64,000 nucleotides of DNA, taken from contig NZ_LT629748.1 in NCBI RefSeq assembly GCF_900105005.1, positions 3,286,001 through 3,350,000 of the forward strand, written 5' to 3'. The DNA comes from Halopseudomonas litoralis (GTDB lineage Bacteria > Pseudomonadota > Gammaproteobacteria > Pseudomonadales > Pseudomonadaceae). The notes under the pieces are model-generated. The model was not told the DNA's origin and made no database searches. It was given only the letters and a program-made list of their open reading frames with translations. Every line of letters begins with the position of its first letter. The first letter of the stretch is position 1. Of the stretch, positions 3 through 10,230 are shown in pieces. The translations under genes and the position numbers were made by a program.

Positions 3-674
3 GGTGACACCATCAAGGTGGCCCGCCTGCCCGACAATATCTACCTGCGCAGCCAGAACGATCCTGACGATCTGATCTGGCAGCGCATCCCGACCTACCG
101 CACCCATGTGTTCCCGGCGCCGCCGGTGCACCAGTCGGTAGCGCTGCGTTTCGACGACGGCGCCATGCGCGGCAAGCACCTGTACTTCCAGGTGGCACGC
201 ACCAGCGAACGCTTCTATGTGCGCCTGCACTGGAAGGATCACACCGAGGACCGTACCAGCGAAGTCGACGCCTTCGGCGATGGCGTTGCGGTACAGTACG
301 CGCTGAACGGCACCGACACCTCCTACATGATGGGCAGCGGGCCGGAAAAACCGGTGAATATCTGGTACTGGCGCGCCGACCAGCGCGACGTCGAAAATCT
401 CGCCGCCGGCGGTTTCGGCAGCACCACCCGGTTGCCCGAGCAGAGCGTGTCCGGTGACGGCCTGTATGTATCCCAGCAGATTGCCCAGGATAATGAATGG
501 CAGGTGGTTATGTCCCGCCCGCTGGAGCCGGCCAGCAAACATGAAGTTGATTTCAAGCAAGGCATGGTTCCCCTGTCCTTTGCTGTCTGGCAGGGAAGCG
601 ACAACGAGCGCGATGGCAACAAGCGCGTTACCCATACCTGGATTCTGCTGGACACCAGCGACAGCAAACGCTGA
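3..674 (+). CDS. Haem-b gamma subunit of an ethylbenzene/DMS-dehydrogenase-type molybdoenzyme (5' partial)
   Basis: The frame is open to the left edge (reading GDTIKVARLP... from base 3), so the N-terminus with any signal peptide lies outside the window; the GTG at 18 is probably internal. The visible 223 residues match the ethylbenzene-dehydrogenase-like haem-binding domain, the periplasmic gamma subunit of complex iron-sulfur molybdoenzymes (ethylbenzene, DMS, chlorate, selenate and steroid C25 enzymes). Supporting motifs are the C-terminal FAVWQGSDNERDGNK block, typical of the family, whose Lys is a candidate axial haem ligand with Met as partner, and the YMMGSG segment. In such enzymes this subunit passes electrons from the Fe-S subunit to a cytochrome or quinone. 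The catalytic alpha and beta genes should lie just upstream. The substrate cannot be told from this subunit. Confidence 0.75.
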   Translation, partial: GDTIKVARLPDNIYLRSQNDPDDLIWQRIPTYRTHVFPAPPVHQSVALRFDDGAMRGKHLYFQVARTSERFYVRLHWKDHTEDRTSEVDAFGDGVAVQYALNGTDTSYMMGSGPEKPVNIWYWRADQRDVENLAAGGFGSTTRLPEQSVSGDGLYVSQQIAQDNEWQVVMSRPLEPASKHEVDFKQGMVPLSFAVWQGSDNERDGNKRVTHTWILLDTSDSKR

Positions 675-704
675 CGCCGGCTTCCCGCAGTGGAGTGAGC
701 AACA

Positions 705-1820
705 ATGTCGGTTTCCCAGTTCAACCCGCAGGACCCGCTGGCACTCGCGCCGGCGGACTGTGACCGCGGTCACGCCTGCCAGTTCTGTCCCGAAGAGCCA
801 AGCTGCCGGCTGGACAAGGGCCACCACGAGAAGCTGGTACTGGACTCGCGCCTGACCCGCATCGACCAGATCATCATGGTCATGGCCAACAAGGGCGGCG
901 TGGGCAAGAGCACGGTGTCGGCCAACATCGCCGCCGGGCTGGCAGCCCAAGGCTACCGCGTGGGCGTTGCCGATGCGGATATCCACGGTCCCAACCAGAG
1001 CCGCTTCTTCGGCTTTGTCGGCGAGCGCGTGCGTATCAGCAAGCGCGGCCTGTCGCCGCTGGCCTTCAATGCATCCGGCCTCGCGCATCCCATTCAGGTC
1101 GGCTCGCTGGCCTTCATGATGGAAAGTGACGACACGCCCATCGTCTGGCGCGACTCCTACAAGCACGACTTCATGCACCACCTGATCGGCTCCTTCGACT
1201 GGGGCGAGCTGGACTTTCTGATCATCGATATGCCACCGGGTACCGGCAACGAGCTGATCACCCTGTCCGACCTGCTGGAAGGCCAGAACGTCGCCGCCGT
1301 GCTGGTCACCACGCCCCAGGAAGTGGCGCTGATGGACAGCCTCAAGGCCGTGCGCTTCTGCCAGGAGCGCGGCATGCCGTTGCTCGGCGTGGTCGAGAAC
1401 ATGGCCGGCGTCACCTGCCCGCACTGCAGCGGCGAGTTCCACCTGTTCCCGCGTGATCATCTGGCCGAGGCTCTGGACAAGGCCGGGGTTGCCTCATTGG
1501 CCCAGGTGCCGTTTTCGCTGGCGCTGGCCAGCGGCTCGGACAGCGGCCAGCCGATCGTGCTCGACGCACCCGAGAGCGCCGAGGCCCGGGCGTTCAGCCT
1601 GGCGGTCAACGCCTGTGTCGATCAGGCCAAGGCCAACTTCGCCGCAGCGGCGGCGGATTCGCTGAAAGCCATGAACCAGGAAGCCCAACAGGCGCCGGAA
1701 CTGGAACAGGCACTCGCCGCGGTACCGGAGGAGCAGCGCGATGCCCTGCGCAGCGAACTGGCAGCCCTGCTGGGCAACCAGCCACTGCCCTCTGCCGGGC
1801 ACGACGGCAGCCCACGCTGA
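705..1820 (+). CDS. Nbp35/ApbC-like P-loop ATPase with N-terminal Fe-S cysteine cluster
   Basis: 371-residue MinD/Mrp-family ATPase. A deviant Walker A (KGGVGKS, residues 63-69) is followed by DADIHGPNQSR, the signature of Mrp/Nbp35 proteins, and IIDMPPGTGNE. Two cysteine sets are visible. C19, C25, C28 and C34 form CX5CX2CX5C, resembling the N-terminal ferredoxin-like cluster of eukaryotic Nbp35 (CX13CX2CX5C). C238 and C241 (CPHC) correspond to the cysteines that bridge a labile [4Fe-4S] cluster at the dimer interface of this family. The family carries or inserts Fe-S clusters. The start has GGAG 9 bases upstream. It lies 30 bases after the molybdoenzyme gamma subunit, so a role in maturing that Fe-S/molybdenum enzyme is plausible but is inference. 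The C-terminal tail of about 60 residues is Ala/Gln/Glu rich and probably helical. Confidence 0.8.
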   Translation: MSVSQFNPQDPLALAPADCDRGHACQFCPEEPSCRLDKGHHEKLVLDSRLTRIDQIIMVMANKGGVGKSTVSANIAAGLAAQGYRVGVADADIHGPNQSRFFGFVGERVRISKRGLSPLAFNASGLAHPIQVGSLAFMMESDDTPIVWRDSYKHDFMHHLIGSFDWGELDFLIIDMPPGTGNELITLSDLLEGQNVAAVLVTTPQEVALMDSLKAVRFCQERGMPLLGVVENMAGVTCPHCSGEFHLFPRDHLAEALDKAGVASLAQVPFSLALASGSDSGQPIVLDAPESAEARAFSLAVNACVDQAKANFAAAAADSLKAMNQEAQQAPELEQALAAVPEEQRDALRSELAALLGNQPLPSAGHDGSPR

Positions 1821-1878
1821 CGTCGTACCTGCGTCACCCCCTTGTTGTACTTCGTTTTATCTGTGAGGACGCTACACC

Positions 1879-3762
1879 ATGACCCAGGCACCCAACGCTG
1901 AACGTCGCCAATTCTTCCGCCAGCTGCTCGGCGGCACCAGCTCCCAGCCACACCGCGCACCCTGGCATCGGGTCCCGGAGGTGGGCGCCGGTGATGGCGA
2001 CGTGCTCTGGTCCGGCTGGTCCGGGGAGGGAGAAGTGTTCGTGGTCGGTGACGAGGGCATGATCCTGCGCTACCGCGGCGGTACTGGCGAGGGCAGTCAG
2101 CGCTGGCAACACATGGAGGTACCCGCCAAACTGCCACTGCATGGCATCTGGGGCCTGCGCGCCGATGACCTGATCGCCGTGGGCTGGATGGGCAGTATCC
2201 TGCACTACGACGGCAGCAGCTGGCAGCAGGTGCGCGGCGGCATTATTGACGAGAACGGCCGCTTCGCCTCCTGCGCAGAAAACACCCCGCTGTTCGCCAT
2301 CGATGGCAACGCCCAAGGCCAGGCCTGGGCGGTGGGTGATGACGGCATCATCCTGCATTACGACGGCAACCAGTGGACCGCAGAAACAGCCCCGACCCGC
2401 ATCAACCTGCGCGCCGTGGCCTGCGCTGCCGATGGCACGGTTTACGCCGCCGGTGGCGAAGGCACTGTATTGCAACGCCAGCTCGATGGAAGCTGGGTCC
2501 AGCTGGACTGCCCGCTGGGCTCGGGCTTCCAGGCCATACTGCTGCTGGACGACGAGATACTGCTGGCTGGCGGGCGCTACTTCGTCGATCCGGGCGGCTT
2601 CCGTGGCGAGCTGGTGCGCTACCGCGACGGCCTGTTCCAGGCGCTGACCTTTGACCAGCCGATGCCCCGCCTGCGCTCGCTCAAAGCCTACAAGGACGGC
2701 GTGCTGATCGTCGGCGACAAGGGCCATCTGTATTACCTGAAAGACCTCAAGCTCGACCGCCTCGAAAGCAACATGCCCCATGACCTGATGGATATCATCG
2801 CCCTGCCCACCGGCGAGGCCCTGGCAGTCGGTGACTTTGGCAGCATCATGACCGCCGCGGACGACTTCACCGCCGCCCTGGCACCGCCGCCCGGCGCTGT
2901 CCCACGCAGCGCCTGGACAGCCATGGCCTCCCCCACCGATCGCCAGCTGTGGGGCATCCATGAAGCGGCGGATGGCACCTGCTACGCCTGTGGCGAAGCC
3001 GGTACCGTTCTGATCCTGAAAGGTGATAGCTGGCGCGCCCTCCCGGCCCCGAGCGAGCTATCCGTGCATTGCGTCTGGGATACCGGCAACGGCCTGTTCG
3101 CCGCCGGCCAGCTCGGCCGCATCTATCGCTTCGATGGCCAGGACTGGCAACTGCACCACGATATGCACCTGGACCTGACCATTCTGTCCATGTGGGGCAG
3201 CGGTCCGGATGACCTCTACGCGGTCGGCGATGAAGGGCTCATCCTGCACTTCGACGGCCTGAGCTGGAAGCGCATGTCCAGCGGTACCCAATCAGCACTC
3301 TACAGCCTGTGGGGCTGGGGCAAGGACCGCATGCTCGCGGTCGGCGACTTCGGTCTGGTGCTGCGCTACAACGGCAAGGACTGGGCCGAGTTCAACGTCG
3401 GCACCGAGAACTTCCTCTACAGCGTCTGGGGGCCAGGGCTGAACGACATCTACACTGTCGGCCTCTCCGGCAGTCTGGCCCACTTCAACGGCCAGCGCTG
3501 GCAGCTGCAACCCACCCGCCTGCGTGATGACCTGCTGAGCGTATCCGGCACCAGCGCGGACAACGCCTACGCCGTCGGCACCCGCGGTCGTATCCTGCGG
3601 TTGCAGGCCGGCCAGTGGATTTCCGAACCCAGCGGCAGCGATGTCGGCCTGCGCGCCGTCTGCGCCACGCGCAACGGAGCGGTCTATGCGGTCGGTGATC
3701 GCGGCACCATTTTGCAGCGCGAGCCAACACAGCCACGCACTCCTCTCCTCGACCAACCATAA
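1879..3762 (+). CDS. Large beta-propeller repeat protein (Ycf48/WD40-like), function unknown
   Basis: 627 residues built of about 13 copies of a 40-50-residue unit of the form LxxVWGxGxxDxYAVGDxGxILHYDGxxW; clear copies include YAVGDEGLILHFDG, LAVGDFGLVLRYNG and YAVGDRGTILQR. Such repeats fold as beta-propellers, as in Ycf48-type assembly factors and BNR/WD40 proteins, so this is probably a one- or two-propeller scaffold. The N-terminus has RRQFFRQLLGG, a twin-arginine-like start without a convincing hydrophobic stretch, so export is uncertain. A GAGG ribosome site lies before the ATG, and the gene follows the Nbp35-like ATPase by 58 bases in what looks like one operon with the molybdoenzyme. 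I infer an assembly or scaffold role for that enzyme; the sequence gives no catalytic motif. Confidence 0.7.
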   Translation: MTQAPNAERRQFFRQLLGGTSSQPHRAPWHRVPEVGAGDGDVLWSGWSGEGEVFVVGDEGMILRYRGGTGEGSQRWQHMEVPAKLPLHGIWGLRADDLIAVGWMGSILHYDGSSWQQVRGGIIDENGRFASCAENTPLFAIDGNAQGQAWAVGDDGIILHYDGNQWTAETAPTRINLRAVACAADGTVYAAGGEGTVLQRQLDGSWVQLDCPLGSGFQAILLLDDEILLAGGRYFVDPGGFRGELVRYRDGLFQALTFDQPMPRLRSLKAYKDGVLIVGDKGHLYYLKDLKLDRLESNMPHDLMDIIALPTGEALAVGDFGSIMTAADDFTAALAPPPGAVPRSAWTAMASPTDRQLWGIHEAADGTCYACGEAGTVLILKGDSWRALPAPSELSVHCVWDTGNGLFAAGQLGRIYRFDGQDWQLHHDMHLDLTILSMWGSGPDDLYAVGDEGLILHFDGLSWKRMSSGTQSALYSLWGWGKDRMLAVGDFGLVLRYNGKDWAEFNVGTENFLYSVWGPGLNDIYTVGLSGSLAHFNGQRWQLQPTRLRDDLLSVSGTSADNAYAVGTRGRILRLQAGQWISEPSGSDVGLRAVCATRNGAVYAVGDRGTILQREPTQPRTPLLDQP

Positions 3763-3771
3763 AGCCCACTC

Positions 3772-3860
3772 CGTCATTGCGAGGAGCACAGCGACGCGGC
3801 AATCCACCGGCCCGGACCAGCAGGCAGTGGATTGCCACGCCCTTCAGACTCGCAATGACG
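3772..3860. repeat. 89-bp imperfect palindromic interspersed repeat
   Basis: The left arm begins CGTCATTGCGAG and continues to GGCAATCCAC; the right arm runs GTGGATTGCC to CTCGCAATGACG. The outer 12 and inner 10 bases are exact reverse complements, with a few mismatches between. I recognise this design (CATTGCGAGGAGC...GGCAATCC) as a widespread bacterial interspersed palindrome. It sits between the propeller gene and the porin and could fold in RNA and separate their expression. I saw no second copy in this window. Confidence 0.75.
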
Positions 3861-3914
3861 CTGTGCGTGATGCTTTTGACCAGATTTTTTTCGCAGCAAG
3901 GAGCTAGAAACACC

Positions 3915-5251
3915 GTGCACACACGCAAACTCAGTCTTATCGCACTGGCCACCGCCGCCGCCATCACTGCCCTGCCCGGCCTGGCCTGGCCAGCAGTCAA
4001 GCCGATGCCGAGGGCTTTATCGAAGGCAGCAGCCTCAACCTGCTGAACAGGAACTACCTGTTTGATCGCGACTACAAGCATGCCTCGGGCATCCACCGCG
4101 ATACCCGCGAATGGGCCCACGGCCTGCGCGCCACCTTCACCTCCGGATATACCCGGGGTACCGTCGGCGTCGGTGTGGACGCCCATGCCGTCGGCGTCAT
4201 CAAGCTGGACAGCGACCGCAACGGCGGCACCGCTTACACCGGCCTGCTGCCGACCGGCTCCGACGGCAAGGCCCAGGACAACTACGCCTACGCCGGCGGC
4301 AGCCTCAAGGCGCGCATCAGCAAGACCGAGCTGAAAGCCGGCGACCTGATCCCCACCAACCCGGTGTTCGGCATGGGCAGCTCGCGCCTGTTCTTCGGCA
4401 CGGCCCAGGGCTTCCAGCTGCTGAGCAACGAGATCGAAGGACTGAACCTGGAAGCCGGGCACTTCACCTCCATCCGCGATGGCAGCATGAACACCAACCG
4501 TGACGGAGAAATCACCCTCACCTACGGTGGTGCAGTGGATGCAGCCAGTGCCGACTACCTGGGCGGCAGCTACCAATTCACCGACCGGTTCAGCGCCATA
4601 CTCTACGCGTCCGAACTCGAAGATGTCTGGAACCAGTACTACGGCAAGCTCAACTACATCCTGCCGCTGGCCAGCGAACGCTCGCTGGCGTTCGACTTCA
4701 ACCTGTACGAGACCCGGGATACCGGCAGGGAGCTGGCCGGCCGGATCGACAACACCACCTGGTCGCTGTCCGCAGCCTACACTGCCGGCGCCCACAGGTT
4801 CATGCTGGCCCACCAGCAGGTCGATGGCGACGAGCCCTTCGACTATATCGGCATGGACAGCGGCAACACCGGCGGCTCCATCTGGGTAGCCAACTCCATC
4901 CAGTATTCCGACTTCAACGGCCCCAACGAAAAGTCCTGGCAGCTGCGCTATGACATCGACATGGGTTATTACGGCGTACCGGGCCTGAACTTCATGGTCC
5001 GTTACATTACCGGTGATGGCATCGATGACACGCACTATAAAGGCGGCGTTTACGGCGGGTACAGCGCCAGCACCGGAGGCAAGGACGGCAAGCACTGGGA
5101 ACGTGACATCGAAGCGCGCTATGTAGTGCAGTCAGGTCCGGCCAAGGACCTCGCCGTCCGCGCCAGCTATGCCGTGCACCGTGACAACGGCTTCAGCAGC
5201 GAAGCGAATGAGCTGCGTTTTGTGGTCGAGTATCCGCTGGATATCTTCTGA
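3915..5251 (+). pseudogene. OprD-family outer-membrane porin with a one-base frameshift in the signal peptide
   Basis: A GTG start at 3915, with AAGGAG 11 bases upstream, opens a typical signal peptide (HTRKLSLIALATAAAITALPGLAW). The frame then runs to a stop after about 43 codons, while the mature OprD sequence continues in another frame: DAEGFIEGSSLNLLNRNY from about 4004, open to 5251. Adding one G between 3989 and 3990 would give LAWASSQADAEGF, a normal cleavage site and a 445-residue protein, the usual OprD length. The rest is intact (two-residue-periodic beta strands, ending VVEYPLDIF). OprD/PhaK channels admit small carboxylates, aromatic or basic compounds. It is either a recent loss of function or a sequencing error. 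A shorter internal start would lack a signal peptide. Confidence 0.8.
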
Positions 5252-5623: not shown

Positions 5624-7102
5624 ATGCTCATTTTCTTCGCCAGCCTTGCGATACTCATTCTCGGCTACAAGTTCTACAGCCCCTTTGTGGAAAAACAAGC
5701 TGGTATAGACCCCACAGCAAAGACGCCTCAAGAACGCCTGCATGATGGCGTGGACTATGTCGCCATCAGTCCGGTCAGAGCCTTCCTGATTCAGTTCCTG
5801 AATATTGCCGGGGTCGGTCCCATTTTCGGGCCTATCCTGGGTGCCCTGTACGGCCCCATCGCGCTGGTGTGGATTGTTATCGGTAACGTGGTGGGCGGCG
5901 CGGTTCATGACTACTTCTCCGGTGTCATGAGCATGAAGGAAGACGGCAAGAGCTTGCCAGAGATTGCGGGTAATTATTACAACGTGATCTTCAAGGGCGT
6001 GATGCTGGTATTCACCTGCATGCTGCTGTTCTTTGTAGGCGTGGTGTTCATCATGAGTCCGGCGGGACTGCTGAGTAACCTGTCTTTCTTCGAAGGTACT
6101 TTCCTGGCCGGTAACACTTTCTGGGTTCTGGTGATTCTGGCGTATTATTTTTTCGCCACCTTGCTGCCCATCGACAAGCTCATTACCAAGCTGTACCCGG
6201 TGTTTGGTTTGCTGATGATTGTAATGACCACGCTGGTTGCTGTGGCACTGTTGCTGGAAGCGCCCAACCTGCCGGTGGTGAATGATGTATTTGCGTATTT
6301 CGACGGCCATCATGAGCATGACTTTCTGGCACCTAACCCGGACGGTTTGCCGGTCTGGCCGCTGTTGTTCCTGACCATTACCTGCGGTGCCATCAGCGGT
6401 TTCCACTCTACCCAGTCACCGATGATTGCCCGTTGTATTACCAATGAAAAATATGCCCGTCCGGTATTCTATGGCGCGATGATGTGTGAAGGCATTGTTG
6501 CCTGTGTCTGGGCGCTGGCCGGTATCGCGGCTTTCCCGGGCGGTTATGTCGAGCTGAAAGGCATGCTGGATCTGGGCGGTCCGGGGCTGGTGGTGAATCA
6601 CATTGCGACCAGTTACCTGGGTATATTCGGTGGCGTGATGGCGATTCTGGCGGTGGCTATTTTCCCGATTACCTCGGGTGATACGGCGTTCCGCTCACTG
6701 CGCCTGACGGTTACCGATGCGTTCAAGATCAAGCAGTCAGTCATGCACAGACTGGCGCTGGCCGCACCGATATTGGGTGTGGCCTATCTGATGACCTTCC
6801 TGGACTTCTCCTTGATCTGGCGCTACTTCGCCTTCTCCAACATGCTGCTGTCTACCAGTGTGTTGTGGCTGGCAACCAAGTATCTGTTTGACCGGGGTAC
6901 TTTCCACTGGATTGCCAGTATTCCAGCAGTGATCGGCACAGCGCTTACCGTGTCCTATATCGCGACGGCCGGGATTGGTTTGAACATGCCGGAGGAGTAC
7001 AGCAAACCCATAGGTATCGTGGTTGGTTTGGCTTGTCTTATCGGCCTGATTTACCAGCATAACAAGCACAATAAGAACGTTTATGCAGGCCCTCAAGCCT
7101 GA
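5624..7102 (+). CDS. Carbon starvation CstA-family transporter (short form)
   Basis: 492-residue integral inner-membrane protein with some 13-15 hydrophobic segments. The N-terminal half has the CstA hallmark GVDYVAISPVRAFLIQFLNIAG, continued by GPIFGPILGALYGP and GGAVHDYFSG; the middle has GFHSTQSPMIAR, also diagnostic. Characterised relatives (CstA, BtsT/YjiY) are proton-coupled pyruvate or peptide importers. This short form lacks the longer C-terminus of E. coli CstA (about 700 residues). Codon use is visibly more A/T rich (tattttttc, gcgtatttc) than in the flanking operons, and it sits between two gene remnants, so it may have been inserted or acquired. Substrate specificity is not determinable here. 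Confidence 0.85.
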   Translation: MLIFFASLAILILGYKFYSPFVEKQAGIDPTAKTPQERLHDGVDYVAISPVRAFLIQFLNIAGVGPIFGPILGALYGPIALVWIVIGNVVGGAVHDYFSGVMSMKEDGKSLPEIAGNYYNVIFKGVMLVFTCMLLFFVGVVFIMSPAGLLSNLSFFEGTFLAGNTFWVLVILAYYFFATLLPIDKLITKLYPVFGLLMIVMTTLVAVALLLEAPNLPVVNDVFAYFDGHHEHDFLAPNPDGLPVWPLLFLTITCGAISGFHSTQSPMIARCITNEKYARPVFYGAMMCEGIVACVWALAGIAAFPGGYVELKGMLDLGGPGLVVNHIATSYLGIFGGVMAILAVAIFPITSGDTAFRSLRLTVTDAFKIKQSVMHRLALAAPILGVAYLMTFLDFSLIWRYFAFSNMLLSTSVLWLATKYLFDRGTFHWIASIPAVIGTALTVSYIATAGIGLNMPEEYSKPIGIVVGLACLIGLIYQHNKHNKNVYAGPQA

Positions 7103-7162
7103 TTCAACTCGGTGTGCGGTTGTGGTGTTAAACACATCACAACCGCACGCAATCACGGTCAG

Positions 7163-7264
7163 GTTATCTGACGTCTTGTTGCGGCCGACGATCTTCAGGT
7201 AGCCGTCGCCATCCATCACCGCCAGATCACCTGTGTGCATCCAGCGCGGGCCGTCGATGGCCTT
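7163..7264 (-). pseudogene. Fragment of an AMP-binding acyl-CoA synthetase gene
   Basis: The minus strand reads KAIDGPRWMHTGDLAVMDGDGYLKIVGRNK, the A8-type motif (GRWMHTGDLAVMDxDGYxKIVGR) of fatty acyl-CoA/acetoacetyl-CoA ligases. Similarity stops after about 34 codons; a TAG closes the frame upstream (7271-7273) and nothing recognisable follows downstream. Such synthetases often neighbour liu operons in Pseudomonas, so this is probably the relic of a gene once attached to the leucine cluster. The rest of 7103-7440 holds the liu promoter region. Confidence 0.7.
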
Positions 7265-7306
7265 GTTAGTCTATGGGACTTGCACTTCCCGAGGGCGCTG
7301 ACAGTG

Positions 7307-7344
7307 TTGACAGTCCTTCAAGAGCAAGTTTACGCTAACGTAAA
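7307..7344 (+). promoter_or_regulatory. Candidate liu operon promoter and MerR-type (LiuR) operator
   Basis: TTTACGCTAACGTAAA at 7329-7344 is a perfect inverted repeat (TTTACG-4-CGTAAA), about 100 bases before liuA. A TTGACA -35-like hexamer lies at 7307-7312, so the palindrome would cover the spacer/-10 zone, the usual place for MerR-family operators. The MerR gene at the end of the operon (16580-16990) is the obvious ligand. The -10 is poor (TACGCT), which would fit a regulated promoter. Confidence 0.55.
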
Positions 7345-7440
7345 GGTGACCGGCTGACGAGATGTTCTTCAGCCAAAGGACGAACGTCGGACTTTCCGGC
7401 GAACCCGATCAAGCAAAACAACTACAAGACAGGTAGCTCC

Positions 7441-8604
7441 ATGACTTACTCCAGCCTCAATTTCGCCCTCGGTGAAACCATCGACATGCTGCGCGAGCAG
7501 GTACAGGCGTTCGCCGCTGCCGAACTGGCGCCACGTGCCGCCGCCATCGACAGTGACAATCTGTTCCCCAGCGACATGTGGAGGAAGTTCGGCGATATGG
7601 GCCTGCTCGGCGTGACCGTTTCCGAGGAATACGGCGGTGCGGGTCTCGGCTACCTGGCGCATGTGGTGGCAATGGAGGAAATCAGCCGCTACTCAGCCTC
7701 GGTAGGCCTGTCCTACGGCGCTCACTCGAACCTGTGCGTCAATCAGATCAACCGCAACGGCACTGCCGAACAGAAGACCCGATATCTGCCCAAGCTGATC
7801 AGCGGTGAACACATAGGTGCGCTGGCAATGAGCGAACCCAACGCCGGCTCCGATGTGGTCTCCATGAAGCTGCGTGCCGATAAAAAGGGCGACCGCTACA
7901 TACTCAATGGCAGCAAGACCTGGATCACCAACGGCCCGGATGCCAATACCTATGTGATTTATGCCAAGACCGACCTGGAAAAAGGTCCACACGGCATTAC
8001 CGCTTTCATCGTCGAGCGCGACTGGAAGGGTTTCTCCCGTGGCAACAAGTTCGACAAGCTGGGCATGCGCGGCTCCAACACCTGCGAGCTGTTCTTCGAT
8101 GACGTTGAAGTACCGGCAGAGAACATTCTGGGCAGCGAAAACGGTGGCGTCAAAGTGCTGATGAGCGGCCTGGATTATGAGCGCGCCGTGCTGGCCGGCG
8201 GCCCCACCGGGATCATGCAGGCCTGTCTGGACGTGGTGGTGCCCTATATTCACGACCGCAAGCAGTTCGGTCAGAGCATCGGTGAATTCCAGTTCATACA
8301 GGGCAAGGTCGCCGATATGTACACCCAGCTCAATGCCAGCCGCGCCTATCTTTATACCGTGGCTCAGGCATGTGACCGTGGCGAAACCACCCGCAAGGAT
8401 GCTGCCGGCGTGATCCTGTATACCGCCGAAAACGCCACCCAGATGGCCCTGCAGGCTATCCAGATTCTCGGCGGCAACGGTTACATCAACGAATTTTCCA
8501 CCGGCCGCCTGCTCCGTGACGCCAAACTCTACGAAATCGGCGCCGGCACCAGCGAGATCCGCCGCATGCTGATTGGTCGCGAGTTGTTCAACGAAACAAA
8601 ATAA
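7441..8604 (+). CDS. liuA: Isovaleryl-CoA dehydrogenase
   Basis: 387-residue FAD acyl-CoA dehydrogenase, the expected length. It oxidises isovaleryl-CoA to 3-methylcrotonyl-CoA in leucine breakdown and hands electrons to ETF. Seen in order: the N-terminal helical domain, [18 protein letters not shown] (FAD-binding middle domain), [27 protein letters not shown], and the C-terminal [21 protein letters not shown] with [10 protein letters not shown]. The [13 protein letters not shown] segment is characteristic of isovaleryl-CoA dehydrogenase, where the catalytic Glu lies in this region rather than in the C-terminal helix. It is the first gene of a liuABCDE-scoAB-atoB operon, 18 bases before liuB. 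Partners etfBA lie at 56663-58343. Confidence 0.92.
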
Positions 8605-8622
8605 ACGTCCGGAGTAGGTTTC

Positions 8623-10230
8623 ATGGCCATCCTGAATACCCAGATCAACACCCGTGCGCCCGAGTTCGCTGTCAATGGCGCAGCCATGCGCGAGCAGGTG
8701 AACAATCTCCGTGCCCTGCTCAATCAGATCAGCGAAGGCGGCGGTGCCAGCGCTCAACAGCGCCATACCTCGCGCGGAAAACTGCTGGTGCGCGATCGCA
8801 TCGATACGCTGCTCGACCCCGGCTCGGCATTCCTCGAACTGTCACAGCTGGCCGCTTATGAAGTGTATGGCGAAAACGTCGCGGCGGCCGGTATCGTCGC
8901 CGGCATTGGCCGCGTCGAAGGCATCGAATGCATGATCATCGCCAACGATGCCACGGTGAAAGGCGGCTCCTATTACCCGTTGACGGTGAAGAAGCACCTG
9001 CGCGCTCAGACCATCGCCCGGGAAAACCGTCTGCCGTGCATCTACCTGGTGGATTCCGGCGGTGCCAACCTGCCGCGTCAGGACGAGGTATTCCCCGATC
9101 GCGAACACTTTGGTCGCATCTTCTTCAATCAGGCCAACATGAGTGCTCAGGGTATCCCGCAGATTGCCGTGGTGATGGGCTCGTGCACTGCTGGCGGCGC
9201 CTATGTGCCGGCGATGGCCGACGAAGCCATCATGGTGCGTAATCAGGCAACCATCTTTCTCGCCGGCCCGCCGCTGGTCAAAGCCGCGACCGGTGAGGTG
9301 GTGACGGCCGAGGACCTGGGCGGCGCCGATGTGCACTGCAAGGTCAGCGGTGTTGCCGATCATTATGCCGAAAATGACGAACATGCCCTGGCCATTGCCC
9401 GGCGCTGCGTGGCCAACCTCAACTGGCAGAAACTGGGCCGGCTGCAGGTGCGCGAACCCAAGGCACCCCTGTATTCGGCCGATGAGCTGTACGGTGTAAT
9501 CCCGGCGCTGTCCAAGCAGCCCTACGATGTGCGCGAAGTGATCACCCGGCTGGTCGATGGCAGCGAATTCGATGAGTTCAAGGCGCTGTTCGGCACCACG
9601 CTGATCTGCGGATTCGCTCATTTGCACGGCTACCCGGTGGCCGTCCTGGCCAACAACGGCATTCTGTTCGCCGAGGCCGCGCAGAAAGGCGCGCATTTCA
9701 TTGAGCTGGCCTGCCAGCGTGGCATTCCGCTGCTGTTCCTGCAGAACATCACCGGCTTCATGGTCGGGCAGAAGTACGAAGCAGGCGGTATCGCCAAGCA
9801 TGGCGCCAAACTGGTCACCGCGGTGAGCTGCGCCCGGGTGCCGAAATTCACCGTGATCATCGGTGGCAGCTTCGGCGCCGGCAACTACGGCATGTGCGGT
9901 CGCGCCTATGACCCGCGTTTCCTGTGGATGTGGCCAAACGCGCGCATCGGCGTGATGGGTGGCGAACAGGCCGCCGGGGTACTGGCTCAGGTCAAGCAGG
10001 AGCAGAGCGAACGTGCCGGCAAGACGCTCAGCGACGACGAAGTGGCCGCCATCAAGCAACCGATTCTCGAACAGTACGAACACCAGGGTCACCCCTACTA
10101 CTCCAGTGCACGACTCTGGGACGACGGCGTGATTGATCCAGCACAGACGCGCGATGTAGTGGGGATGGCGTTATCCGCCTCGCTCAACGCACCGATCGAG
10201 CCGACCCGCTTCGGCGTGTTCCGCATGTGA
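8623..10230 (+). CDS. liuB: 3-Methylcrotonyl-CoA carboxylase, beta (carboxyltransferase) subunit
   Basis: 535 residues, the normal size for the MCC beta subunit. It carries carboxyltransferase N- and C-domains of the crotonase-like superfamily: [20 protein letters not shown] near the start, [48 protein letters not shown], and in the C-half [20 protein letters not shown] and [19 protein letters not shown]. Together with LiuD it carboxylates 3-methylcrotonyl-CoA to 3-methylglutaconyl-CoA with biotin-bound carboxylate. The KAATGEVV and [10 protein letters not shown] stretch is typical of MCC/PCC. It lies between liuA and liuC, with a 28-base gap to liuC. Confidence 0.93.

What the first reader, a model, noticed from the sequence alone, without database searches (positions are those of the whole stretch)
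3..3762. Molybdoenzyme gamma subunit linked to an Nbp35-like Fe-S ATPase and a 13-motif beta-propeller
Seen: the three genes are on one strand with gaps of 30 and 58 bases. Known: type II DMSO-reductase enzymes (ethylbenzene, DMS, chlorate, selenate, C25-steroid) usually come as alpha-beta-gamma plus a TorD-like chaperone. I do not know a described system in which the gamma gene is followed by a P-loop Fe-S carrier ATPase and a long propeller. Inference: a dedicated maturation/assembly module for an enzyme that hydroxylates a hydrocarbon, steroid or terpenoid, or oxidises another reduced substrate. An OprD-type porin lies next to it.
Basis: partly seen in the sequence, partly recalled or inferred. 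Interest (0 to 1): 0.75.

Follow-up and report, generated by a model that had tools for sequence, protein, structure and literature searches.

The report
DMS-dehydrogenase-type operon with undescribed maturation pair
Next to a molybdenum enzyme of the kind that oxidises the climate-relevant gas dimethyl sulfide lie two extra genes, an iron-sulfur carrier ATPase and a double propeller protein, that accompany the enzyme in every close relative examined and probably help to build it.

Summary
Left of the window lie the missing genes: cytochrome c, catalytic alpha, four-cluster beta, TorD-type chaperone and the start of gamma. The operon reads alpha-beta-delta-gamma-ATPase-propeller. Alpha groups with a Rhodovulum sulfidophilum protein that I identify as dimethyl sulfide dehydrogenase DdhA (68% identity, no gaps) and is 45% identical to chlorate reductase. 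From the propeller, 45 of 45 testable loci have the ATPase directly upstream and gamma before it. From alpha, 22 of 22 genomes with hits of 76% or more, own genome included, carry both. The Ideonella clr locus has neither. The ATPase has Cx5Cx2Cx5C and CPxC in 46 of 46. The propeller is modelled as two seven-bladed propellers with a Tat-like RRx[FLM]F start lacking a hydrophobic region in 45 of 45 intact N-termini. Best reading: a dedicated cytoplasmic Fe-S loading and export-checkpoint pair for a DdhABC-type enzyme. That role is inferred. DMS as substrate is likely but unproven, because residues near the Mo ligand differ from DdhA. The porin is not a conserved partner.

The parts
3..674 (+). 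gamma (heme b) subunit, cut by the window edge; full gene G000:C1:3285889-3286674
   Evidence: TIGR03477 190 bits, PF09459 68 bits; Met and Lys motifs aligned with those of EbdC
705..1820 (+). Nbp35/Mrp-type P-loop ATPase dedicated to the operon
   Evidence: PF10609 250 bits; a different housekeeping ApbC lies elsewhere in the genome
759..806 (+). N-terminal Cx5Cx2Cx5C motif (C19, C25, C28, C34)
   Evidence: 46 of 46 operon ATPases; invariant in alignments A2 and A3
891..914 (+). deviant Walker A, KGGVGKST
   Evidence: 46 of 46
1416..1427 (+). CPxC motif (C238, C241), the cluster-bridging motif of Nbp35/ApbC
   Evidence: 46 of 46; the 'bridging' role is recalled knowledge
1879..3762 (+). double beta-propeller protein
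   Evidence: AlphaFold2 model m07f7dc4e86ff, pLDDT 88.8, pTM 0.54
1903..1929 (+). Tat-like motif RRQFFRQLL at the propeller N-terminus, no hydrophobic region after it
   Evidence: RRx[FLM]F in 45 of 47, the two misses (L059, L060) being N-truncated; hydropathy compared with alpha
1963..2853 (+). first seven-bladed propeller (residues 29-325)
   Evidence: DSSP strands of the model
2914..3720 (+). second seven-bladed propeller (residues 346-614)

Best explanation
The three genes are the end of a six-gene operon for a periplasmic type II DMSO-reductase-family enzyme of the DdhA (dimethyl sulfide dehydrogenase) clade. SHOWN by sequence: alpha has a Tat motif, the Mo-ligand region and the His/Cys FS0 site; beta has 15 Cys, as for four Fe-S clusters; gamma is the heme b type with a hydrophobic N-terminus; delta is a TorD-type chaperone; ATPase and propeller were present with them in every testable locus. 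INFERRED: in the cytoplasm the Nbp35-like ATPase holds labile [4Fe-4S] clusters at its CPxC and N-terminal cysteine sites and hands them to apo-alpha-beta, which needs five clusters. The double propeller is the adaptor. Its N-terminus imitates the alpha Tat motif but lacks the hydrophobic region, so it could dock on the TorD-type chaperone (or shield the alpha signal) without being exported. That would bring ATPase, chaperone and apo-enzyme together and delay Tat export until clusters and Mo cofactor are in. The mature enzyme then oxidises DMS or a similar small sulfide to the sulfoxide and passes electrons through beta and the gamma heme to cytochrome c.
For: Operon content and Pfam/NCBIfam scores. 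Alpha 68% identical to the R. sulfidophilum protein over 910 residues without gaps; both in one 28-row clade, SH-aLRT 100. Stappia and Labrenzia alphas are 75.8% and 75.6% identical to that protein, as the published 76% for DMS-degrading isolates of those genera against DdhA (PMC6524544, passages). Linkage 45 of 45 from the propeller side and 22 of 22 from the alpha side, own genome included. Operonic ATPase distinct from the housekeeping ApbC. ATPase motifs 46 of 46 and propeller Tat-like motif without hydrophobic region. Small cytochrome c gene in 21 loci, in 18 just upstream of alpha. Chlorite dismutase family absent from 15 of 16 genomes.
Against: No experiment shows that either protein is needed for the enzyme. 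The ATPase could insert something else, and the propeller fold is generic. The beta/gamma-proteobacterial rows (20, this window among them) differ from the alpha-proteobacterial rows (8, P0337 among them) at 14 fixed columns of 910; one (I to G) lies six residues before the Asp aligned with the Mo ligand, and the residue three before it is D in the first set and V or T here, so the substrate may differ. That the R. sulfidophilum protein is DdhA is inferred; its record has a generic name. ATPase and propeller in R. sulfidophilum itself were not seen, only in its nearest relative found (88%, L077). Eleven alpha rows just outside the 28-row clade could not be tested for the two genes. The chaperone scores below its NCBIfam cut-off (131 against 152). 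The cytochrome c gene was not seen in about half of the loci and is on the other strand in 13.
Confidence: 0.58

Rival explanations
1. Same module, but the substrate is not DMS: the beta/gamma-proteobacterial enzymes act on another small sulfide, or on another reduced or oxidised compound.
For: Fixed differences near the Mo ligand between the two sets of rows; hosts include genera such as Halomonas, Marinobacter and Denitrificimonas (titles) that are not known to me as DMS phototrophs.
Against: Alpha 68% identical to the DdhA-type protein, with 397 of 910 columns invariant over both sets; beta 82-98% identical to the window's among the loci.
Confidence: 0.3
2. It is a chlorate (or similar oxyanion) reductase, as in Ideonella.
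For: The best plasmid hits are ClrA at 45%; one host, Stutzerimonas chloritidismutans, respires chlorate (recalled).
Against: ClrA and its relatives form a separate clade. A chlorite dismutase family hit is found in 1 of 16 genomes, only S. chloritidismutans, and not on the operon contig. Ideonella Cld has no match in the operon loci, the window or its left flank (run without a positive control in the same database). The clr locus lacks ATPase and propeller.
Confidence: 0.05
3. The propeller is exported by Tat and works in the periplasm, as an assembly factor or electron-transfer partner.
For: Conserved RRx[FLM]F; a weak match, far under cut-off, to the assembly factor Ycf48.
Against: No hydrophobic stretch near the arginines: median best 15-residue hydropathy in the first 50 residues 0.23 (range -0.33 to 1.06), against 1.13 in alpha (-0.07 to 1.61) and 1.79 in gamma. 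The ranges of propeller and alpha overlap.
Confidence: 0.12
4. ATPase and propeller place or regulate the enzyme (MinD/ParA-like) instead of maturing it.
For: The ATPase belongs to the ParA/MinD superfamily and matches MinD models under their cut-offs.
Against: Best Pfam family is the NUBPL iron-transfer NTPase, and two cysteine motifs are invariant, which positioning ATPases do not need (recalled).
Confidence: 0.1

Closest known systems
Dimethyl sulfide dehydrogenase DdhABC, ddhABDC (Rhodovulum sulfidophilum)
   Same: Alpha in one clade and 68% identical; order alpha-beta-delta-gamma (order for ddh recalled); heme b gamma with Met and Lys motifs; cytochrome c nearby in about half of the loci
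   Different: Two further genes, ATPase and propeller, not met in the texts found here; residues near the Mo ligand differ in the window's enzyme
Chlorate reductase clrABDC (Ideonella dechloratans, L067)
   Same: Same four-gene order, a gamma subunit and a cytochrome c gene close by
   Different: 45% alpha; no ATPase or propeller match; mobB and chlorite dismutase instead
Haloarchaeal type II operon (Haloferax larsenii plasmid, L068)
   Same: Type II alpha, beta, EB_dh gamma, TorD, and an Mrp-type ATPase in the same gene run
   Different: ATPase is a FeS_assembly_P-Mrp-DUF2249 fusion with a HEAT-repeat neighbour, no propeller match; alpha 36-37%; that such operons encode nitrate reductases is recalled, the record says molybdopterin-dependent oxidoreductase
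Eukaryotic CIA system: Nbp35-Cfd1 scaffold plus Cia1/CIAO1 WD40 adaptor
   Same: A P-loop [4Fe-4S] ATPase teamed with a WD40 propeller (PMC6205161, PMC10623007, passages)
ApbC/Mrp of the same genome
   Same: P-loop ATPase with CxxC
   Different: Another N-terminal part in place of the four-cysteine motif; elsewhere in the genome

Membership tests
Type II DMSO reductase family (DMSO_red_II) | Alpha over the curated model cut-off | tested here: met
   TIGR03479 1226.8 bits, cut-off 984.75
Type II DMSO reductase family (DMSO_red_II) | FS0 pattern HxxxCxxxC(n)C (pattern from PMC8301774, passage) | tested here: met
   HxxxCxxxC in 41 of 41 alphas over 880 residues; RGCQKG in 40 of 41, RGCNKG in the other
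Type II DMSO reductase family (DMSO_red_II) | Beta with four Fe-S clusters | tested here: met
   TIGR03478 567 bits, cut-off 481; 15 Cys in 43 of 43 betas over 300 residues
Type II DMSO reductase family (DMSO_red_II) | Gamma heme b subunit with Met and Lys ligands | tested here: met
   TIGR03477 over cut-off; Met motif in 45 of 46 (not L045), Lys motif in 45 of 46 (not L050); ligands as in PMC8840923 (passage), placed by the EbdC alignment
Type II DMSO reductase family (DMSO_red_II) | Dedicated TorD-like chaperone over cut-off | tested here: inconclusive
   TIGR03482 131.1 bits, cut-off 152.3; PF02613 57 bits, cut-off 22.2
Dimethyl sulfide dehydrogenase (DdhA) | Alpha in the clade of R. sulfidophilum DdhA | tested here: met
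   28-row clade, support 100, includes P0337; that P0337 is DdhA is inferred
Dimethyl sulfide dehydrogenase (DdhA) | Same residues next to the Mo ligand | tested here: not met
   I199 of P0337 is G203 here, and D202 is V206; hence 'DdhA-type', not filed as DdhA
Dimethyl sulfide dehydrogenase (DdhA) | DMS oxidation | not testable with these tools
   needs an assay
Chlorate reductase | Chlorite dismutase partner in the genome | tested here: not met
   absent in own genome and 14 of 15 others
Nbp35 (N-terminal four-Cys P-loop NTPase) | Deviant Walker A and CPxC | tested here: met
   46 of 46
Nbp35 (N-terminal four-Cys P-loop NTPase) | N-terminal CX13CX2CX5C (recalled) | tested here: not met
   here CX5CX2CX5C, 46 of 46: the last two spacings agree, the first does not
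Cia1/CIAO1 | Sequence or specific structural relation | tested here: inconclusive
   not among the 3 hits of the sequence search; fold match tied with many propellers

The most novel reading that the evidence does not exclude
Bacteria hold single-client counterparts of the eukaryotic CIA system: an Nbp35-like [4Fe-4S] ATPase plus a double-propeller targeting adaptor that carries a decoy Tat motif, so that cluster loading of a DMS-dehydrogenase-type enzyme is coupled to release for export. The haloarchaeal operon with an Mrp fused to a FeS_assembly_P domain beside a HEAT-repeat protein would be a second, independently assembled version.
Probability: 0.28. Interest if true: 0.82.

Novelty: new variant of a known kind. 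Interest (0 to 1): 0.6.

Why it matters
DMS oxidation by DdhA-type enzymes is surveyed from ddhA alone (as in PMC6524544 and PMC7039863, passages). If two further genes are obligatory for a working enzyme, they matter for heterologous expression and could serve as added markers. How five-cluster exported molybdoenzymes receive their Fe-S clusters before Tat export is open as far as I know, and a dedicated ATPase with a propeller adaptor and a decoy Tat motif makes it directly testable by single deletions. The work also places the enzyme clade in Halomonas, Marinobacter, Pseudomonas relatives and Alcaligenaceae.

Tried and rejected
Rejected: hydrocarbon or steroid hydroxylase (EbdA model 432 against 2000 bits). 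Rejected: chlorate reductase. Rejected: the porin as a module member (1 of 46 loci).

An apparent result thrown out: one search gave alpha identities of only 33-93%, which looked like a fast-evolving catalytic subunit. My query had an off-by-one start; with the right start alpha is 71-99% identical. The alpha and gamma numbers must not be used, nor its rows for the molybdenum-cofactor genes, several of which were also in the wrong frame.

Led nowhere: the propeller search over an even draw of the class had matches in 3 of 274 genomes, of which only the own genome is a true one (the others are other repeat propellers). TIGR03479 over the phylum found only the own genome (1 of 398). In the genus of G802 only G802 itself had a hit (1 of 11), so R. 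sulfidophilum was not reached. No regulator, transporter or pathway gene stood out beside the operon: apart from the cytochrome c cluster (21 loci) and a 9-locus cluster of reading frames overlapping it, clusters held at most 9 loci, most of them within Marinobacter or Halomonas (open frames, not called genes). Fold search: all top folds are generic propellers; the VIA list tests mainly the second propeller, and the first was not searched alone. The ATPase model (pLDDT 78.3) was not fold-searched. The tree is a quick one with a printed warning that the ClrA and haloarchaeal long branches may join falsely; this does not touch the 28-row clade.

Rows dropped: of 52 loci, six weak ones (L061-L066) have no operon and were left out of the linkage count; L060 begins inside the propeller gene and cannot be tested. 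Alphas of 880 or fewer residues (under 900 for the Tat count) and betas of 300 or fewer were left out of the motif counts. L059 (beta, propeller) and L052 (alpha, propeller) look broken in their drafts and were only described. Thirteen of the 19 stretches are the same places as loci (contig lengths agree) and are not counted twice among the 49. Of four more distant alphas (35-38%, L118-L121, two genomes) none shows ATPase or propeller, but L120 and L121 leave little downstream DNA.
Full report
What is there. The window is bases 3286001-3350000 of a 3.99 Mb genome in one contig. Its nearest named relative in this work is Pseudomonas saudimassiliensis (alpha 99% identical; told as the same genus, where G1096 has the contig length of that record). 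Coordinates G000:C1: cytochrome c 3280879-3281202 (Pfam Cytochrom_C), alpha 3281316-3284093, beta 3284106-3285086, TorD-type delta 3285102-3285842, gamma 3285889-3286674, then ATPase (window 705-1820) and propeller (1879-3762). Molybdenum-cofactor genes lie further left (MobA-like; MoaE; MoeA-like). NCBIfam scores: alpha TIGR03479 1227 bits, beta TIGR03478 567, gamma TIGR03477 190, all over cut-off; delta TIGR03482 131, under its cut-off of 152.

Which enzyme. Against solved structures alpha is nearest to perchlorate reductase PcrA and ethylbenzene dehydrogenase, and the alignments keep the GD of the Mo-ligand region (that this Asp is the ligand is recalled). A search from Ideonella ClrA brought in the reference set (best 120 of 2723 listed). 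One member, P0337 from Rhodovulum sulfidophilum, is 68% identical to the window's alpha over 910 residues without a gap; ClrA is 45%. In a 56-row tree (quick IQ-TREE) P0337 lies in one 28-row clade (support 100) with all 26 operon alphas put in. Inside it the 20 beta/gamma-proteobacterial rows, the window's among them, form a group (support 100); the 8 alpha-proteobacterial rows fall into two groups whose branching is unresolved. Eleven further alphas of unknown context lie just outside, and ClrA relatives form another clade. P0337 carries only a generic name. I take it for DdhA because R. sulfidophilum is the DMS dehydrogenase organism (PMC7039863, passage), and because Carrion et al. 2019 (PMC6524544, passages) report 76% identity to R. 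sulfidophilum DdhA in DMS-degrading Labrenzia, Oceanicola and Stappia isolates; here Stappia L053 is 75.8% and Labrenzia P0291 75.6% identical to P0337.

A caution on substrate. Between the 8 alpha-proteobacterial and the 20 beta/gamma-proteobacterial rows 397 of 910 columns are invariant and 14 are fixed differences. One, I199 of P0337 against G203 here, lies six residues before the Asp of the GD; the residue three before that Asp is D in the 8, V in 18 and T in 2 of the 20. The pocket is therefore not identical, and 'DMS dehydrogenase' for the window's enzyme is a likely assignment, not a demonstrated one. Chlorate reduction is unlikely: a chlorite dismutase family hit occurs in only 1 of 16 operon-bearing genomes, that of Stutzerimonas chloritidismutans, on other contigs than the operon.

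Are the ATPase and propeller really tied to it? From the propeller: 52 loci, 46 with at least 47% identity. Of these, 45 extend upstream, and all 45 have the ATPase directly before the propeller and gamma before that; delta, beta and alpha follow as far as the contigs reach, alpha being incomplete in L052. From alpha, without using the propeller: 3 of 394 genomes of the family of Mameliella, 3 of 37 of the own genus, itself included, 1 of 385 of the class of Pelagibius, which is Pelagibius itself (two further genomes have hits of only 35-38%), and 15 of 201 of the Halomonas family. All 22 genomes with hits of 76% or more to the query carry ATPase and propeller. These searches overlap with the propeller search: four of the 22 (G797, G802, G1636, G1504) had not been found from the propeller. 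G802, the nearest relative of P0337 found (88%), is among them. Distinct places besides the window: 49. The Ideonella clr locus has neither gene. The distribution is patchy. The only neighbour shared widely is a small cytochrome c, in 21 loci: in 18 just upstream of alpha, 13 of these on the other strand, and in 3 downstream of the propeller. So the module goes with the enzyme, not with a chromosomal region.

The ATPase. It is a NUBPL/Mrp P-loop ATPase with deviant Walker A, CPxC, and an N-terminal Cx5Cx2Cx5C, each in 46 of 46. In 16 operon genomes (E up to 1e-20) the operonic form scores 570-704 bits (two copies in G672) and the other Mrp relatives 158-211 bits, matching only from model position 43 or later. 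In the own genome the second one is an ApbC with another N-terminus and a CxxC. Nbp35 has CX13CX2CX5C (recalled), so the last two spacings agree and the first does not.

How it most likely works. Alpha-beta needs one FS0 and four further clusters (beta has 15 Cys in 43 of 43) before it leaves through Tat. The ATPase supplies clusters, the propeller brings ATPase, chaperone and apo-enzyme together, and its decoy motif competes for the chaperone until loading is complete. Only the parts and their linkage are shown; the transfer, the binding and the checkpoint are inference.

Comparison with CIA. In eukaryotes the Nbp35-Cfd1 scaffold makes [4Fe-4S] clusters and a targeting complex of CIAO1, CIAO2B and MMS19 helps hand them to clients (PMC6205161 and PMC10623007, passages; Cia1 as a WD40 protein from a reference title there). 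The pairing here of an Nbp35-like ATPase with a propeller is alike in logic. A haloarchaeal operon (L068) pairs an Mrp fused to a FeS_assembly_P domain with a HEAT-repeat protein beside another type II enzyme, which recalls CIAO2B and MMS19 (their families recalled). This is analogy, not homology.

What is in print. Ten searches of the open-access library listed no paper whose title or abstract start describes these two genes with a type II enzyme. In one search the three listed papers that name DMS dehydrogenase hold none of 'propeller', 'Nbp35' or 'Mrp'; papers with fewer than three of its six terms were not listed. The founding ddh papers were not among the results and were not seen, so prior mention there cannot be excluded. 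Read in part: PMC6050957 (section 9 and passages), PMC6524544, PMC7039863, PMC8840923, PMC8301774, PMC6650914, PMC6205161, PMC10623007 (passages); PMC9243173 returned no passage. The rest were seen as listings.

Verdict. A real, conserved, apparently undescribed two-gene extension of DdhA-type operons: a new variant of a known kind, interest 0.6.

Noticed in passing
window 3915-5251: The OprD-type porin gene seems interrupted: a signal-peptide-like start lies in another frame than the barrel (open frame 4175-5251, Pfam OprD from profile position 57)..
   Followed up: partly
window 3763-3865: Long hairpin between propeller and porin genes (RNA energy -51.6 kcal/mol, z -5.7); looks like a REP-type element, but the 100-base query matched only itself in the genome (shorter copies could be missed).
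   Followed up: partly
L035, L036, L038: Second copies of parts or most of the operon lie beside the first (two ATPase copies in G672).
   Followed up: no
L068:13624-16678: Haloarchaeal type II operon with an Mrp fused to FeS_assembly_P and DUF2249 domains, a HEAT-repeat protein and a 299-residue protein without Pfam match.
   Followed up: partly
alpha (G000:C1:3281316-3284093), residues 203-209: Residues next to the Mo-ligand Asp separate alpha-proteobacterial DdhA-type rows from the beta/gamma-proteobacterial ones, which may mark a change of substrate.
   Followed up: partly
window 5624-10230: Downstream of the porin lie a CstA-like transporter, an acyl-CoA dehydrogenase and a carboxyl transferase, perhaps leucine/isovalerate breakdown (recalled), with no sign of a link to the operon.
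   Followed up: no
L052, L059: Marinobacter fuscus and one Halomonas MAG carry operon genes that look broken in these drafts.
   Followed up: no
window 705-1820, ATPase residues 292-355: The operonic ATPase model ends in helices after the P-loop domain, including a long one at 292-329; what it contacts is unknown.
   Followed up: no
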